DNA of 44,881 bases from a virus. The translations under genes and the position numbers were made by a program. Below, one piece after another: positions 23,071 to 28,773 of the stretch. The notes beneath the pieces are model-generated. The model worked only from the letters and a program-made list of their open reading frames with translations. It did no database searches and had not been told where the DNA came from. The stretch spans positions 1 through 44,881 of IMG/VR virus record IMGVR_UViG_3300023174_000279. One strand, written 5' to 3'. Position 1 is the first letter of the stretch, and every line of letters starts with the position of its first letter.

Positions 23071-24168
23071 ATGGCATCTATAACTGCTCCATCGCTAACG
23101 CTAAGATCTACTAAAGGTAGTCCTCTTACAAACGCTGAAGTTGATCAAAACTTTACAAATATATCCACACAGATTGCGCTTGGCCAGACTGCTGCCAGTT
23201 ATACTGCAGCTGACGTTCTAGCAAAACTTATTACTGTTGATGGTTCTGGCTCTGGTCTAGACGCTGACTTGCTAGACGGATTAAACTCCGCCACTGCAAA
23301 TACTGCTTCTACTATCGTTGCTCGTGACGCTTCTGGTAACTTTGCTGCTGGTACTATTACTGCTACTCTTTCTGGTAATGCTTCTACTGCTACTGCTCTT
23401 ACATCTACATTAGGTGTTGCTGCTGGTGGTACTGGTGCTACTTCTGCCTCAGCTGCTAGAACTAACTTGGGTGTTGTCATTGGTACTGATGTTCAAGCAT
23501 ATGATGCTGAACTAGCTGCTCTTGCTGGTGTTACTTCTGCTGCTGATCGCTTACCATACTTTACTGGTTCTGGTACTGCTGCAGTAACAACTTATACAGC
23601 ATATGCTCGTTCTCTAGATGCAGCTGCTGACGCTGCAACTGCTCGTTCTACTCTTGGCTTAGTTCTTGGTACAGACGTTCAACCATTCGATGGTGACTTA
23701 TCTGCTATCGGTGGTCTTACTGGTACTGGTGGTGTTTATGTTAAAACTGCTGCCAATACTGCTGCCCTAAGAACTATTACTGCTGGCGCTGGTATTTCTG
23801 TTACTAACGGCGATGGTGTTTCTGGTAACCCAACTATCGCTGCTAATGTAACGTCAGTTCAAGGTAATACTGGTGCGGTTATTGTTTCAGTTCCTGTTAC
23901 ATCGGTTCAAGGTAATACTGGTGCGGTTATTGTTTCTAGTGTAGCATACTCAACCATTGCTGGTACTGCTCAAGCTGGCTGGCCAACTTCTCTTTCTGGT
24001 TTTACTAACAACTTGGGTAACTATGGTGCGTTTGTTGATGGAACTGGTCAAGGCGGTGCGCAATTTGGCCAAAACACGCCACGTGTAACATCAGTTTATA
24101 TGTCAAAACAAGGTAACTATGGTAGCTGTCAAGTTGGCGCAGCATGTAACTGCAATTGCAACTGTTAA
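23071..24168 (+). CDS. Tail fibre with Cys-Asn C-terminal tail (candidate modified protein)
   Basis: 365 residues. The N-terminus has [20 protein letters not shown], a common attachment motif of phage fibres. The middle has repeats of the type [19 protein letters not shown] and two exact copies of [14 protein letters not shown]. The last fourteen residues read [14 protein letters not shown]: all five cysteines of the protein lie there (C353, C359, C361, C363, C365), four of them alternating with Asn. This tail is unlike ordinary fibre tips and lies two genes before a SPASM radical SAM enzyme, so it may be the substrate of that enzyme. Alternatives are metal binding or disulphide cross-linking. 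The ribosome binding site is AAGGAAAC. Confidence 0.85.
23857..23936 (+). repeat. 32-bp direct repeat in the fibre gene
   Basis: A 32-base sequence beginning GTTCAAGGTAATACTGG occurs at 23857-23888 and 23905-23936, giving the repeated peptide [12 protein letters not shown]. Confidence 0.85.
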
Positions 24169-24180
24169 TTAGGATTAAAA

Positions 24181-24993
24181 ATGGCAAACGTATATAAAAT
24201 ACAAAGACCTTCAGGTAGATTTAATGTTTATACATCAAATGAAGCAAACTTTGTCCATATTATTGATATCACTCCGCAAACACTAACATATCAACTTAAA
24301 GATACTGATACAGATACTCTTTATCATAATTTAGTTTTTAACTTAGATAATCTAAAACAAAACCAAAGATTTGGTGAACAAACTTGGTGGGCTATTGACG
24401 ATCGTTATATTACATATGATTCTGTCAATGCTGGTACTTCTAGTTTAATTAATATTCCATCTGATGGATTTATTAGTATTTTAGATGATACATATGTATC
24501 AAAACGAGGCGCAATTGCAAGATTTGGCGTAGATAATTATGATATGTGTCCAATTAGGATCTTTGTTCCAACTGCAGATGGTGATTTTACTACTTGTTCT
24601 TATGCTGTAATTATCCCAGACACTACTGATTTACATCTTAATGGTGTTGATTTAAATCCACAACCAACAACAATTGATGTTACTGGTGGAACAGTAGTTG
24701 AGGGTGAGTTTTATTGGAGATCATTACTATCTAAAGTAACAGCAACTACTCAATCATCAAGTACAGCAGGTACTAGTATTAAGGTTAATGTTACTGCTGA
24801 AGAAACCAATCTTAAGAAACTTTATCTTGAACCAATTTGTGGTGTTCTTGATAGAACAGAAGTTAAACTAACAAATGGTTCTGGAAGTTTTAATATTTTA
24901 ACTTCCACATTAATTGCTGGTGAAACAGTAGAAGTCAAAATTGGCCATAAAAAATTTAGCAATATAACTAAATTTACTAAAGTTTTAAGTTAA
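24181..24993 (+). CDS. Unknown beta-rich protein following the Cys-tailed fibre
   Basis: 270 residues, not recognised. There is no signal peptide or membrane segment. The first 110 residues are rich in aromatic and Asp residues (VYKIQRPSGRFNVYTSNEAN, TWWAIDDRYITYD). The last 60 look like an Ig-like sandwich (SGSFNILTSTLIAGETVEVK). Three cysteines (C123, C139, C220) are scattered. It has a good ribosome binding site (TAGGATTA) and starts 12 bases after the fibre, so it is probably co-expressed with it. It could be a fibre partner, a fibre chaperone or a distal receptor-binding piece; no function can be assigned from sequence. Confidence 0.55.
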   Translation: MANVYKIQRPSGRFNVYTSNEANFVHIIDITPQTLTYQLKDTDTDTLYHNLVFNLDNLKQNQRFGEQTWWAIDDRYITYDSVNAGTSSLINIPSDGFISILDDTYVSKRGAIARFGVDNYDMCPIRIFVPTADGDFTTCSYAVIIPDTTDLHLNGVDLNPQPTTIDVTGGTVVEGEFYWRSLLSKVTATTQSSSTAGTSIKVNVTAEETNLKKLYLEPICGVLDRTEVKLTNGSGSFNILTSTLIAGETVEVKIGHKKFSNITKFTKVLS

Positions 24994-25003
24994 AAACTAA
25001 TGA

Positions 25004-25011
25004 CATAAATA
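25004..25011 (+). promoter_or_regulatory. Putative late promoter (CATAAATA) before the radical SAM gene
   Basis: The octamer CATAAATA lies in the 68-base gap before the radical SAM gene and is directly followed by the hairpin at 25013-25035. Confidence 0.6.
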
Positions 25012-25012
25012 G

Positions 25013-25035
25013 TCTGGTAGGAGAAATCCACCAGA
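25013..25035 (+). terminator. Hairpin with GAAA tetraloop and T-rich tail, terminator-like
   Basis: TCTGGT, a bulged A, GGA, loop GAAA, TCC, ACCAGA form a nine-pair stem, followed by ATTATTTATTTT. This fits an intrinsic terminator for the fibre and unknown-protein transcript. It lies right where the start site of the overlapping late promoter would be. Confidence 0.7.
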
Positions 25036-25061
25036 ATTATTTATTTTGAAATCAGGATATT

Positions 25062-26447
25062 ATGGCTATTTTTAAAATTGATTCTTTGCAGCCAGTAACT
25101 GGCGAAAAACGTATAATTTATTATGATTCTTCAGTAAGCACTCTTACATGGGAAGATGGTACTAATATCATCCCAGAAGCAAAAATCCAACCACCAGTCA
25201 AACAAGTTAAACTTGAAACAGGTAAACGAGAATTTTCTAAAATCAAAATACAATTAGGATTATCTTGTAATTTTGAATGTGATTATTGTTCTCAGAGATT
25301 TGTTCCAACTGCAGACGCAACCAATCCAGATGATGTTCAACCATTTGTTGATAATATGTCTACGTGGTTCCATGGTGGAGAAGATGGTTTAGGTAAAGGT
25401 GTCCAATTTGAATATTGGGGTGGTGAACCCTTTGTTTATTGGAAAACTATGAAACCATTGGTTGAATCAATTAAGTTAAAATACCCAAATGCTAAAAACT
25501 TAGTTATAACTAATGGTAGTCTATTAGACTTAGAAAAAAATTCTTGGTTAGATAAACATGATTTCTTAGTTTGTATATCACATGATGGTCCAGGGCAATT
25601 TGTTAGAGGTCCAGACCCACTAGATGATCCAAAATCTAAAGAAGGTATTATTGATATTTTTAAAAGACTTGCTCCAAAAGGTAGATTTTCTTTTAATGCA
25701 ATGATAAACTCTAAGAATATTAATCGAGAAAGTATTTCTTTATTCTTTGAAAAATTAGTTGTAGACAACATTGGCAATGACTACCTAAAATATTTGTATA
25801 TTGGCGAGGGTGGTTTTGTAGATGCATATGATGATGGTGGTTTATCTAATTCTCTATTAGATGAAGAAGAAGATGTAAAATTTAGGAATTTATCATATAA
25901 TGAGATAAGAGATGCTAAAGCTGAAAGATTTGTTTCTATAAACCAAAAAGTTAATAGTTTTATAGAAGGTGTAAAAGCAGGAAGACGAATTGAGTCGCTA
26001 CCTCAAAAATGTGGTATGGATAAAGCAAGTAATATTGCGGTAGACTTAAATGGGAATGTCCTAACTTGTCAGAACGTAAGTTCAGTTTCTAATAATCCAG
26101 ACGGGATATCTCATTTACTTGGAACAGTCGATAATCTAGAACAAATTCGTATAAACACTGGAACGCACTGGAGTGATCGAAAGGATTGCCCAACATGCCC
26201 AGTAATCCATCTTTGTAAGGGTGCTTGTTTGTTTTTGTCTGGTGATCTTTGGGATGCATCTTGTAATAATTCATTTAGTGATAATATTACAGCATTTGCA
26301 ATGGCATTTGAGATTTTAACTGGGTATATCCCAGTTTACCTTGACGGACCACAACGTCCTGATCGTAAGGATATTTTTTGGTGGGTTAATGGGAAGCCAG
26401 AAAATACTAGGAAACTAAAGAAGATTATCCCTATTGTTGCGGTATAA
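25062..26447 (+). CDS. Radical SAM/SPASM peptide-modifying-type enzyme
   Basis: 461 residues. A short beta-rich N-terminal part (about 1-55) precedes the radical SAM core: C69-x3-C73-x2-C76 (CNFECDYC), which binds the catalytic 4Fe-4S cluster, then the GGEP motif in EYWGGEPFVYW. The C-terminal part carries a complete SPASM signature: C317-x13-G331-x4-C336, C376-x2-C379-x5-C385-x3-C389, and C401. These would hold two auxiliary clusters. SPASM enzymes usually modify peptides or proteins, for example anaerobic sulfatase maturases and sactipeptide, ranthipeptide or PQQ-type maturases. All ligands are present, so the enzyme should be functional. It is embedded in a virion operon, two genes after a fibre with a Cys-Asn tail and followed by a 96-residue partner candidate. 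The substrate is inferred, not shown. Confidence 0.92.
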   Translation: MAIFKIDSLQPVTGEKRIIYYDSSVSTLTWEDGTNIIPEAKIQPPVKQVKLETGKREFSKIKIQLGLSCNFECDYCSQRFVPTADATNPDDVQPFVDNMSTWFHGGEDGLGKGVQFEYWGGEPFVYWKTMKPLVESIKLKYPNAKNLVITNGSLLDLEKNSWLDKHDFLVCISHDGPGQFVRGPDPLDDPKSKEGIIDIFKRLAPKGRFSFNAMINSKNINRESISLFFEKLVVDNIGNDYLKYLYIGEGGFVDAYDDGGLSNSLLDEEEDVKFRNLSYNEIRDAKAERFVSINQKVNSFIEGVKAGRRIESLPQKCGMDKASNIAVDLNGNVLTCQNVSSVSNNPDGISHLLGTVDNLEQIRINTGTHWSDRKDCPTCPVIHLCKGACLFLSGDLWDASCNNSFSDNITAFAMAFEILTGYIPVYLDGPQRPDRKDIFWWVNGKPENTRKLKKIIPIVAV

Positions 26448-26449
26448 AC

Positions 26450-26740
26450 ATGGAACCTTTTGTTAATCAGATGTGTATAGAGATTGATCAAACTCATAGG
26501 ATCGGTGATAATTGGGATATCTTTGCTATAAAGGATATGTTTTTATTTAACTCTACTGTAAATAATTATGGTCAAAAAGACACTATAATTCCACTTAGTT
26601 TAATCCTAAATAAAGAAGAACTTCCTAATCAAGAACATATAAAACATATTATAAATAACAGAGAACCTGTTATGAAAAGAGTGATTGACCTAAATAATCA
26701 AACAGAAAACTGGGTATTTATACCTAAAAAGGAAAATTAA
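26450..26740 (+). CDS. Small protein linked to the radical SAM enzyme, unknown
   Basis: 96 residues, starting two bases after the radical SAM stop, so translation is probably coupled. It is soluble and charged. It has a beta-like N-terminus (MCIEIDQTHRIGDNWDIFAI), a helix with NKEELPNQEHIKHIINNREP and a basic C-terminus (VFIPKKEN). The size suits a substrate-binding partner such as a RiPP recognition element (winged-helix, about 80-100 residues), or a phage-specific accessory. It has only one Cys and no leader-core pattern, so it does not look like the precursor itself. I do not recognise the family. Confidence 0.6.
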   Translation: MEPFVNQMCIEIDQTHRIGDNWDIFAIKDMFLFNSTVNNYGQKDTIIPLSLILNKEELPNQEHIKHIINNREPVMKRVIDLNNQTENWVFIPKKEN

Positions 26741-26742
26741 AA

Positions 26743-27690
26743 ATGACTACCAAACATGTAAAATGGGTTATTGCCCACGAACCTATCGGTTTGTTTTTGA
26801 AGGTTGCAGAAGCATTTTCTGCAGAAGTTAATGCTAAAACTAATGGTGCATTTGACATCGAAGTTCTCTCATTAACTGATTATACTAACAAGTATAATGA
26901 TGGCAAGAAAATAAACAAGAATGAATTAATGGAGTTAGTTGATACTGGCAAAATTGAAATGAGCCATATCTATACTACTTGGTTAGCGGATTATAATAAA
27001 GATCTACATGCGTTGGATCTACCATTCTTGTTTAAAGACCACGATCATGCTGACCGTGTTTTAGAAGGCAAAATTGGCGCTGAGTTACTAGCTGGTGTTG
27101 CTAAGAATTCTAATACACATGCTATGTCTTTCACTTACTCTGGTGGCTACCGTGTAGTTCCAGCAAACTTCCGTGCTGATACTGTTGCTTCTTGGGAAGG
27201 TCAAACTGTTCGTACTTCACGTAGTCCAGTTGCTGTTGAGACATTCAAACTTCTTGGCGCAGTTCCAAACAAAGATATCGAACTTGAACAAATGAATCAA
27301 GCTGCAGATGCTGGTTTGATTACTGCTGGTGAATCTACATATGTTCGTATTTTCCCGCTACAACAAAATGAATCATTCAAAGTAGTTAATGATACTGCTC
27401 ACAGTTTGTTCTTAACTTCTATTATTGTTAACCAAGATTTCTTCAAACAGTTTGATGCTGAAACTCAAGAGATTATGGCTACTGCTGCTTTCAATGCTGC
27501 TCGCAAAGAGCGTCGTGAATCAGTTGCTGATATTCCAAATATCTTGGCTCAGTGTAAAGCAGAAGGTGTTGAAGTTGTGCGTATGTCTGCGGAAGAAGAA
27601 ACTAAATTTAAATCTGTTACTTCTAAAGTATACGAGAAGTTCGCTGATTACTTCACTCCAGGATTGGTTCAGAAGATTCAGTTACACTAA
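26743..27690 (+). CDS. TRAP-type solute-binding protein (DctP family) without signal peptide
   Basis: 315 residues. The fold signature is clear: KWVIAHEPIGLFLKVAEAFS at the N-terminus, a middle WEGQTVRTSRSPVAVETFKL with LLGAVP, and the Arg of the carboxylate-binding motif in QTVRTS. The usual family proteins are periplasmic and catch organic acids for a DctQM permease. This one starts directly with the mature domain (MTTKHVKWV), so it would stay in the cytoplasm unless built into virions. It follows the 96-residue gene by two bases, with a good ribosome binding site (AAAAGGAAAA), and is ended by a strong hairpin. It could be a virion receptor or permease-docking protein, or a metabolic gene; the sequence cannot decide. 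Confidence 0.88.
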   Translation: MTTKHVKWVIAHEPIGLFLKVAEAFSAEVNAKTNGAFDIEVLSLTDYTNKYNDGKKINKNELMELVDTGKIEMSHIYTTWLADYNKDLHALDLPFLFKDHDHADRVLEGKIGAELLAGVAKNSNTHAMSFTYSGGYRVVPANFRADTVASWEGQTVRTSRSPVAVETFKLLGAVPNKDIELEQMNQAADAGLITAGESTYVRIFPLQQNESFKVVNDTAHSLFLTSIIVNQDFFKQFDAETQEIMATAAFNAARKERRESVADIPNILAQCKAEGVEVVRMSAEEETKFKSVTSKVYEKFADYFTPGLVQKIQLH

Positions 27691-27704
27691 TTAATTTTTA
27701 GTGA

Positions 27705-27711
27705 CTAAATA
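27705..27711 (+). promoter_or_regulatory. Possible late promoter (CTAAATA) overlapping a terminator
   Basis: GACTAAATA lies between the TRAP protein gene and the hairpin at 27711-27734, about 40 bases before the PP-loop gene. Confidence 0.45.
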
Positions 27712-27734
27712 TTAGGGAGCTGAGGCTCCCTAAT
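27711..27734 (+). terminator. Perfect 10-bp hairpin, intrinsic terminator-like
   Basis: ATTAGGGAGC, loop TGAG, GCTCCCTAAT is a perfect inverted repeat followed by TTCATTT. The flanking A and T tracts also suit a bidirectional terminator, but the next gene is in the same direction. Confidence 0.8.
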
Positions 27735-27750
27735 TTCATTTGAGGAATAT

Positions 27751-28773
27751 ATGATATTACATTATAATGCACACATGATTTCTGATATTATAAAGACAGA
27801 CCTACATTTAATAGAAAATAGTGGGTTTCTTTCTGATAACTGGTTGAATACATTTAATCAATATGAAAAATTCGGTTTAAATAATCATAACGCTGTTTTT
27901 GATCGAACTAATGTCTTACCGCATTATCTTAATATATCTAAAGATAAACATCCAATCCCAACTGGAATGTGTAACAAATCATTCTTTGAAGTTTCTGAAC
28001 AAAGAGCAAAAGAATTATTATCCTTAGATGTCCCTATTAATGTAATGTGGAGTGGGGGTATAGATAGCACATACATATTATTCCTCTTAAAATATTTTGC
28101 AAATGATCCAGATCAGATACGGGTTTATGGAACTTATAATAGTATATTTGAATCTGGCGACCTATTTGATAGAAGAATTAAAAAAGAGTTTAAATATAAT
28201 ATTAAAATTGCCCAGAATAACGAATTTAATTATGAACATGAGGGTATATATGTAAGCGGTATGTGTGGTAATCAATTGTTTGGACCAACCGATGATATGT
28301 TTGCTACTGGATCTACTGCTATGTTCCATCATACCTTAGGATCTCCAAATACAATATATGAACCTTATACTGTAATCAACCCAGAAATACTTGAATTTTT
28401 ACACCCAATTATCAAATCTTCTCCTAAAAAAATAGAAACTGTTGCAGACTTAAGATGGTTATGTATTTTCAATCTAGATTGGTATACTTCTATTTACGAA
28501 CATAAAATTATGTTGCCAAAGCACAAATATGATAGTATACATGGTTTTTTCAATTCTGACCAGTTTCAGAGATGGGCAATTAATACTAAAGAACCATTTA
28601 CTAGAGTTCCAGGAAATCCAAATACACATAGATGGCAAATGAGAGATGTTTTATCCGATTTATTTGGTGAGGTTCATTATGCTCAAAACAAATCTAAAAA
28701 GATATCAAATTTTTCAATACATAATTTTTTGTGGATTCTACTCTTAGAAAATGGTAAGAATATTTTGCAATAA
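27751..28773 (+). CDS. Asparagine-synthetase-like PP-loop ATP pyrophosphatase domain protein
   Basis: 340 residues. The PP-loop WSGGIDSTYILFLL (residues 100-113) is the ATP-binding motif of N-type pyrophosphatases. YVSGMCGNQLFGPTDD (about 168-183) corresponds to the GDGADELFGG region of asparagine synthetase C-terminal domains. The N-terminal 95 residues lack the catalytic Cys of the glutaminase domain, so it would need ammonia, an amine or another nucleophile. The family adenylates carboxylates and makes amides, including beta-lactam synthetases and lasso-peptide cyclases. Here it lies just after the radical SAM operon. A modification role on the neighbouring fibre tail, or on Asp/Asn, is inference. 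It has its own strong ribosome binding site (GAGGAA). Confidence 0.72.
   Translation: MILHYNAHMISDIIKTDLHLIENSGFLSDNWLNTFNQYEKFGLNNHNAVFDRTNVLPHYLNISKDKHPIPTGMCNKSFFEVSEQRAKELLSLDVPINVMWSGGIDSTYILFLLKYFANDPDQIRVYGTYNSIFESGDLFDRRIKKEFKYNIKIAQNNEFNYEHEGIYVSGMCGNQLFGPTDDMFATGSTAMFHHTLGSPNTIYEPYTVINPEILEFLHPIIKSSPKKIETVADLRWLCIFNLDWYTSIYEHKIMLPKHKYDSIHGFFNSDQFQRWAINTKEPFTRVPGNPNTHRWQMRDVLSDLFGEVHYAQNKSKKISNFSIHNFLWILLLENGKNILQ

What the first reader, a model, noticed from the sequence alone, without database searches (positions are those of the whole stretch)
23071..28773. Candidate phage-encoded RiPP-like system that modifies a virion fibre
Seen: in one late operon region, a fibre whose five cysteines all lie in a C-terminal [14 protein letters not shown] tail, an unknown protein, a radical SAM enzyme with the complete SPASM signature, a 96-residue protein two bases later, a TRAP-type binding protein, and an asparagine-synthetase-like PP-loop enzyme. 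Known: SPASM radical SAM enzymes and asparagine-synthetase-like enzymes are both typical maturases of ribosomally made, modified peptides. Inference: the phage may modify its own fibre tip, for example by thioether or other C-C/C-S cross-links on Cys-Asn, to make a rigid or reactive receptor-binding tip.
Basis: partly seen in the sequence, partly recalled or inferred. Interest (0 to 1): 0.92.

Follow-up and report, generated by a model that had tools for sequence, protein, structure and literature searches.

The report
Phage enzyme tailoring cysteine-tipped tail fibres
Many phages and prophages carry a radical-SAM enzyme of the kind that chemically modifies peptides, almost always beside a tail-fibre protein ending in an alternating cysteine tail, so they probably build a chemically modified fibre tip, which I could not find described before.

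Summary
The window's radical SAM/SPASM enzyme belongs to a large phage family (over 570 viral contigs; 82 loci in bacterial genomes). Its genes sit beside virion-type proteins ending in alternating Cys arrays (CNCNCNC, CNCACNC, CACACAC).

Two-way test. A blind DNA search for a C-N-C-N-C-N-C-stop end found 50 real gene ends; all 46 with enough contig carry the enzyme. In the enzyme's main clade, 138 of 157 have an array, 14 are contig fragments and 5 lack a strict one. Fibre relatives without the tail have no enzyme within the fetched flanks. Where the fibre lacks the tail but the enzyme is kept, the next gene is a separate Cys-array protein.

In nine sequences the array is followed at once by a Hint domain with its Cys and His intact, which would cleave and expose the array at the C-terminus.

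The 96-residue protein, TRAP-type protein and asparagine-synthetase-like enzyme form a separable module found without enzyme or tail. The "unknown" 270-residue protein is a two-domain Ig-like protein.

The chemistry is inferred: most likely thioether cross-links. Formylglycine is disfavoured. No modification has been measured.

The parts
23071..24168 (+). Tail-fibre protein (365 aa) carrying the C-terminal Cys array; presumed substrate
   Evidence: Matches PHROG tail-fibre families; five Cys, all in the tail; homologues share N-terminal part and NCNCNC end
24124..24165 (+). C-terminal tail [14 protein letters not shown] with the alternating Cys array CNCNCNC ending at the last residue
   Evidence: Sequence; array conserved beside the enzyme across the family
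24181..24993 (+). Two-domain Ig-like protein (270 aa), frequent third gene of the system; probably a virion protein, not a RiPP recognition element
   Evidence: Relatives near the enzyme in 197 of 271 loci; AlphaFold model pLDDT 94, all-beta with C-terminal Ig-like fold; Big_1 hit in a relative
25062..26447 (+). Radical SAM/SPASM enzyme (461 aa), phrog_1802-like; presumed maturase of the Cys array
26450..26740 (+). 96-aa protein, part of a separate accessory module (not a core part of the Cys-tail system)
   Evidence: Found with the PP-loop gene in loci without enzyme or array
26743..27690 (+). TRAP (DctP-type) binding protein; accessory module, not core
   Evidence: absent from enzyme+tail loci L002, L004, L012-L016, L027; present without them in L375-L381 and others
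27751..28773 (+). Asparagine-synthetase-like PP-loop enzyme without glutaminase domain; accessory module, not core

Best explanation
This is a dedicated virion-tailoring system. A phage-encoded radical SAM/SPASM peptide maturase acts, during late expression, on an alternating Cys-X array (X = Asn, Ala or Asp) at the C-terminus of a tail-fibre or fibre-tip protein. The modified array becomes the outermost tip of the fibre. Shown by comparison: the enzyme-array pairing, the C-terminal placement of the array, and Hint domains that would cleave to expose it. Inferred: that the enzyme modifies the array at all. Inferred with less confidence (about 0.45): that the product is a ladder of radical-made thioether links from Cys sulphur to a neighbouring X or backbone carbon (2 Da lost per link), giving a rigid, protease- and redox-resistant tip for receptor contact or outer-membrane penetration. 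The Ig-like protein encoded between fibre and enzyme is probably a partner virion protein. The 96-aa/TRAP/Asn-synthetase-like genes are a separate module.
For: (1) Blind DNA pattern scan for CNCNCNC-stop in viral contigs: 53 hits, 3 out of frame, 50 real ORF ends; enzyme in the same stretch for 41 and elsewhere on the same contig for 5; the other 4 contigs end too soon. (2) Enzyme to array: 94 of 107 distinct enzyme loci with full flanks by a strict scan; most exceptions are degenerate or missed arrays, or a distant chromosomal sister group; tree clade of 157 has 138 with an array. (3) Loss together: fibre relatives without the tail (L319-L371) have no enzyme in their flanks. (4) Substrate swapping: tail on one big fibre, on 2-3 tandem 81-98 aa mini-fibres, on a separate small protein, or on a Cys-rich protein 16-48 bp upstream of the enzyme; the array and the enzyme stay. 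(5) Nine distinct Hint domains start 0-1 residue after the array, with invariant Cys1 and His. (6) X positions: N 452, A 140, D 67, all others 38. (7) The enzyme is closest in fold to peptide- and protein-modifying SPASM enzymes: anSME, CteB, ChlB, TigE.
Against: No modification has been observed; all links are genomic. The product chemistry is not fixed by homology: every NCBIfam maturase model scores far below its cut-off. No RiPP recognition helices are seen in the enzyme model and no leader peptide is evident. A few relatives in the clade lack a strict array (L011, L021, L153, L193, L196), and a divergent phage group (L413, L415) has the enzyme but no array in 36-57 kb.
Confidence: 0.72

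Rival explanations
1. The array is an unmodified metal-binding tip (for example Zn, Cu or an Fe-S cluster at the apex of a fibre trimer), and the enzyme acts on another partner and merely travels with it.
For: Alternating Cys are plausible metal ligands; phage spike tips often hold a metal ion (own knowledge). The array varies from 3 to over 10 Cys, which suits a loose metal site better than one defined cross-link.
Against: 46 of 46 informative CNCNCNC ends carry the enzyme; metal binding alone needs no radical enzyme. X is almost only N, A or D.
Confidence: 0.12
2. The enzyme is an anaerobic sulfatase-maturase-like oxidase that turns the Cys residues into formylglycine (aldehyde tip that could react with host amines), as the JWF annotation implies.
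For: Best Foldseek hits are anSMEcpe structures, including those with Cys peptides bound; JWF annotation 'anaerobic sulfatase-maturating enzyme'.
Against: The residue after the SPASM Cys that is the catalytic Asp277 in anSMEcpe (own knowledge) is Gln337, invariant over 23 diverse members. No C-x-P-x-R motif. Score 44 against a cut-off of 349.
Confidence: 0.1
3. The array is a peptide cargo or bacteriocin-like RiPP that uses the virion for delivery rather than a structural tip.
For: Enzyme class typical of RiPPs; the group with 129-173 aa Cys-rich proteins beside the enzyme looks like precursor plus maturase.
Against: No RiPP exporter, leader peptidase or immunity gene seen in the main-clade loci read; the array is fused to fibre N-termini shared with ordinary fibres; Hint cleavage would keep the array on the fibre side.
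Confidence: 0.08
4. The radical SAM gene is an auxiliary metabolic gene unrelated to the fibre, and its place is a shared cargo site.
For: The TRAP and Asn-synthetase-like genes in the same stretch do behave as separable cargo.
Against: Two-way co-occurrence across siphovirus-like, T4-like and prophage settings, with the substrate gene changing form while the array stays.
Confidence: 0.03

Closest known systems
PapB / ranthipeptide radical SAM maturases (NF047865)
   Same: Radical SAM + SPASM; makes many thioether links between Cys and Asp/Glu side-chain carbons; PapB accepts Cys-Xn-Asp with n = 0-6 (PMC9413430)
   Different: Window enzyme scores 49.6 against a cut-off of 340; substrate here is a virion fibre C-terminus with Asn/Ala/Asp between the Cys; no recognition helices in the model
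CteB (SCIFF thioether maturase) and TigE, solved SPASM RiPP maturases
   Same: Fold and sequence similarity
   Different: Low identity (13-16%); precursors there are small peptides with leaders
Anaerobic sulfatase-maturating enzyme (anSME)
   Same: Best fold match; modifies a Cys in a protein rather than a free peptide
   Different: Catalytic Asp position is an invariant Gln; no CxPxR motif; score far below cut-off
Achromobacter phages JWF and 2-1 (phrog_1802 enzyme plus Hint-fused fibre)
   Same: Same enzyme family (43-45% identity) and a fibre with a CNCDCNC-type array in a cultured siphovirus
   Different: Array followed by a Hint domain; annotated separately as 'anaerobic sulfatase-maturating enzyme' and 'Hint family protein', with no link made in the record
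DynA and quinohaemoprotein maturase (QhpD) SPASM enzymes
   Same: Similar SPASM architecture; DynA is the top NCBIfam hit (E 2e-14); both modify ribosomally made chains
   Different: Both far below the curated cut-offs (53 of 450; 37 of 453)

Membership tests
Radical SAM / SPASM enzymes | CxxxCxxC SAM cluster motif | tested here: met
   C69, C73, C76 invariant in 13 and 23 diverse members
Radical SAM / SPASM enzymes | Seven-Cys SPASM signature CX9-15GX4C ... CX2CX5CX3C ... C | tested here: met
   C317, G331xxxxC336, C376, C379, C385, C389, C401 invariant; TIGR04085 28.8 bits, cut-off 27
RiPP biosynthetic system | Gene-encoded substrate linked to a dedicated maturase | tested here: met
   Genomic linkage only: 46/46 array ends with the enzyme; 138 of 157 in the enzyme clade
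RiPP biosynthetic system | Leader peptide and RiPP recognition element | tested here: not met
   Enzyme N-terminus is three strands without recognition helices; the Ig-like partner is not an RRE fold; no leader visible
RiPP biosynthetic system | Leader protease, exporter or immunity gene | tested here: not met
   None in the main-clade neighbourhoods read; ABC-transporter-like genes only in the distant relatives L187 and L193
RiPP biosynthetic system | Demonstrated post-translational modification | not testable with these tools
   Needs mass spectrometry
Ranthipeptide maturase PapB (NF047865) | Curated family score | tested here: not met
   49.6 bits, cut-off 340
Anaerobic sulfatase maturase | Asp after SPASM Cys276 (base) and CxPxR substrate | tested here: not met
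   Position is invariant Gln337; no CxPxR in the arrays; 43.9 bits, cut-off 349
Hint domain (in JWF-type substrates) | N-terminal Cys1 and block-B His | tested here: met
   Both invariant in nine distinct sequences; Pfam Hom_end_hint E 3e-12, above cut-off, in JWF
Hint domain (in JWF-type substrates) | Actual self-cleavage | not testable with these tools
   Needs expression
Asparagine synthetase-like RiPP cyclase as part of this system | Co-occurrence with enzyme and array | tested here: not met
   Absent in L002, L004, L012-L016, L027; present without them in L375-L381, L383, L386-L388, L397

The most novel reading that the evidence does not exclude
Tailed phages have a widespread, previously unrecognised class of virion maturation in which a radical enzyme rebuilds the extreme tip of the receptor-binding fibre into a non-standard polymer (repeated Cys-to-neighbour cross-links or another alternating backbone change). 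In some lineages a self-cleaving Hint domain exposes or transfers that tip.
Probability: 0.55. Interest if true: 0.95.

Novelty: new variant of a known kind. Interest (0 to 1): 0.88.

Why it matters
If true, phages build receptor-binding tips from chemistry so far known from peptide antibiotics and cofactors. It gives a function to a large family of phage radical SAM genes that are otherwise annotated only by domain, offers an easy genomic handle (CxCxC-stop beside phrog_1802) in cultured phages and prophages, and would add a new radical peptide chemistry with a very simple repeat substrate. No paper describing it was found in the open-access library searched; subscription journals and preprints were not held.

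Tried and rejected
Asn-synthetase-like enzyme, 96-aa protein and TRAP protein as co-maturases: rejected by co-occurrence. The 270-aa protein as a RiPP recognition element: rejected by its predicted fold. Formylglycine formation: disfavoured. Family search for Cys-array proteins in Pfam, NCBIfam and PHROGs: no precursor family found. Scan with the 270-aa protein alone found nothing, its sequence being too variable for that tool. Plasmid search: no full-length relative. Fibre search in phages with the JWF fibre: only JWF and 2-1 full length.

Full report
Observation. The fibre at 23071-24168 has five cysteines, all in [15 protein letters not shown]. The enzyme at 25062-26447 has the SAM-cluster motif and the complete seven-Cys SPASM set. 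The window is a 44.9-kb virus record with baseplate, hub and connector genes around the region, so the setting is a late tail operon.

The enzyme family. The enzyme matches phrog_1802 (E 2e-63) and no curated NCBIfam maturase above its cut-off; the nearest are DynA, PapB, anSME and nif11-type maturases.

Enzyme to array. In the first 80 viral loci, most loci with upstream DNA have a protein ending in an alternating Cys array just upstream. In a strict scan over 178 distinct enzymes, 94 of 107 with full flanks have one. Of the 13 others, L011 and L021 end in NCRNCNC, L072 has GNCNCN and NCNCSK, L054 and L258 were missed by the scan rules (their arrays are visible and, for a near-identical locus, 38), L153 probably has a frameshifted substrate (not proven), and seven (L193, L196, L198, L200, L204, L205, L207) are distant relatives with bit scores under 390. 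In the tree a clade of 157 (support 1.0) has 138 with an array, 14 undecidable fragments and 5 without a strict one. A divergent phage group (L413, L415) has the enzyme and no array anywhere in 36-57 kb; L413 falls with the chromosomal outgroup in the tree.

Array to enzyme. I searched all viral contigs for DNA encoding C-N-C-N-C-N-C-stop, which knows nothing of the enzyme. Of 53 hits three are out of frame with many stops. Of the 50 real gene ends, 41 have the enzyme in the fetched stretch, five more have it elsewhere on the same contig (L111 and L132; L095, L123 and L129 lie on contigs already known), and four end at a contig edge 0.1-1.4 kb past the tail. No informative counterexample exists. 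As a background, C-terminal CxCxC tails occur in 155 of 2427 ORFs on the enzyme's strand within 4.5 kb and in 7 of 4513 other ORFs in the same loci.

Loss together. Searching with the fibre minus its tail gives two sets: relatives with the Cys tail, which have the enzyme wherever the contig reaches that far (L318, with only 2.4 kb past the fibre, is cut too early because the accessory genes lie between in its near-identical relative L310), and relatives without it (L319-L371), which have no enzyme in the fetched flanks (up to 7 kb; several are shorter). Four loci (L311, L312, L315, L316; also L130 and the fragment L314) have a homologous fibre that ends in a chaperone-type coil with no Cys tail, yet L311, L312, L315, L316 and L130 keep the enzyme; there the next gene after the fibre is a separate 117-133 aa protein with 15-19 Cys ending in NCNCACNCNC-type arrays. 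So the array is a movable module: one 350-440 aa fibre, two or three tandem 81-98 aa mini-fibres (L025, L049, L100), a stand-alone protein, or a Cys-rich protein 16-48 bp upstream of the enzyme.

Placement of the array. In about 155 of 178 distinct substrates the array ends 0-9 residues from the C-terminus. Of the rest, nine distinct substrates continue at once into a Hint domain (CFPAGT...), with Cys1 and the block-B His invariant, in Achromobacter phages, a Burkholderia genome, Rhodospirillales and a Halomonas genome. From established Hint biology, cleavage before Cys1 would leave the array as the new C-terminus or pass it to a nucleophile. This is independent support that a free C-terminal array matters. 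Another group (L069, L072, L077 and kin) has a different domain, CSKIICTKL..., after the array, unexplained.

Composition. Inside the arrays X is Asn 452, Ala 140, Asp 67, all others together 38. Cys is the constant; X is mostly limited to residues with a plain beta carbon, while Gly and Ser are rare. This fits, but does not prove, chemistry at a carbon of X or its backbone.

The enzyme fold. The model (pLDDT 88) matches anSMEcpe, CteB, ChlB and TigE best. The N-terminus is a three-stranded sheet without the helices of a RiPP recognition element. The residue after the SPASM Cys that is Asp277 in anSMEcpe (its catalytic base, from my own knowledge) aligns with an invariant Gln337, which argues against formylglycine. 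PapB, a related maturase, links Cys to Asp at spacings of 0 to 6 residues, also nested (PMC9413430), so closely spaced thioether links in a C-N/D-C array are chemically plausible.

The other genes. The 270-aa protein is predicted with high confidence (pLDDT 94) as an all-beta protein with Ig-like folding, best seen at the C-terminus, and has relatives near the enzyme in 197 of 271 loci. It is probably a virion partner. The 96-aa protein, the DctP-type protein and the Asn-synthetase-like enzyme are a second module: missing between enzyme and next gene in L002, L004, L012-L016 and L027, and present without enzyme or array in L375-L381, L383, L386-L388 and L397; in L377 and L383 they lie near phage-encoded IscU/IscA-type genes.

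Mechanism and confidence. Shown: co-inheritance, C-terminal array, Hint placement, enzyme class. Inferred: the enzyme modifies the array (about 0.8); the product is thioether cross-links (about 0.45), or other radical chemistry such as epimerisation or C-C links (about 0.25); the tip acts in receptor contact or envelope penetration (about 0.6). No modification has been measured, and no earlier description was found in the searched library. Papers that mention JWF were checked only in part.

Noticed in passing
window 26450-28773; L377 5771-8735; L383 6727-10338: A separable phage module of a ~96-aa protein, a DctP-type binding protein beginning MTTKHVKW with no obvious signal peptide, and a PP-loop Asn-synthetase-like enzyme lacking the glutaminase domain; in other phages it lies by IscU and IscA genes. 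Function unknown.
   Followed up: partly
L077 11480-12382, L072 11484-12437, L066, L069, L075-L080: Substrate proteins encoded just downstream of the enzyme whose Cys array is followed by a ~170-aa domain starting CSKIICTKL and a hydrophobic stretch; no family match.
   Followed up: partly
L025 5714-7562; L049 8160-9998; L258 6198-8001: Two or three 2OG-Fe(II) oxygenase-like genes in a row between the Ig-like proteins and the radical SAM gene; possible further tailoring (for example Asn hydroxylation).
   Followed up: no
L413 and L415 (3300004687, 3300025382): Divergent phage group with a related radical SAM gene next to the Asn-synthetase-like and 96-aa-like genes but no Cys array in the contig.
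   Followed up: partly
L198, L200, L204, L207: Chromosomal sister enzymes (Variovorax, Ramlibacter, a gammaproteobacterial MAG), some with a ~770-aa protein upstream and, in L200 and L204, an ATP-grasp-looking gene; a possible bacterial system with another substrate.
   Followed up: no
L195 (Polynucleobacter necessarius chromosome, G025:C1:1086237-1087583): The enzyme gene is split over reading frames, so it looks like a decayed remnant.
   Followed up: no
L025 3431-4214, L049 5799-6608: Three tandem ~85-aa mini-fibres with similar N-termini and different bodies, each with its own Cys tail: a possible diversification set for receptor binding.
   Followed up: no
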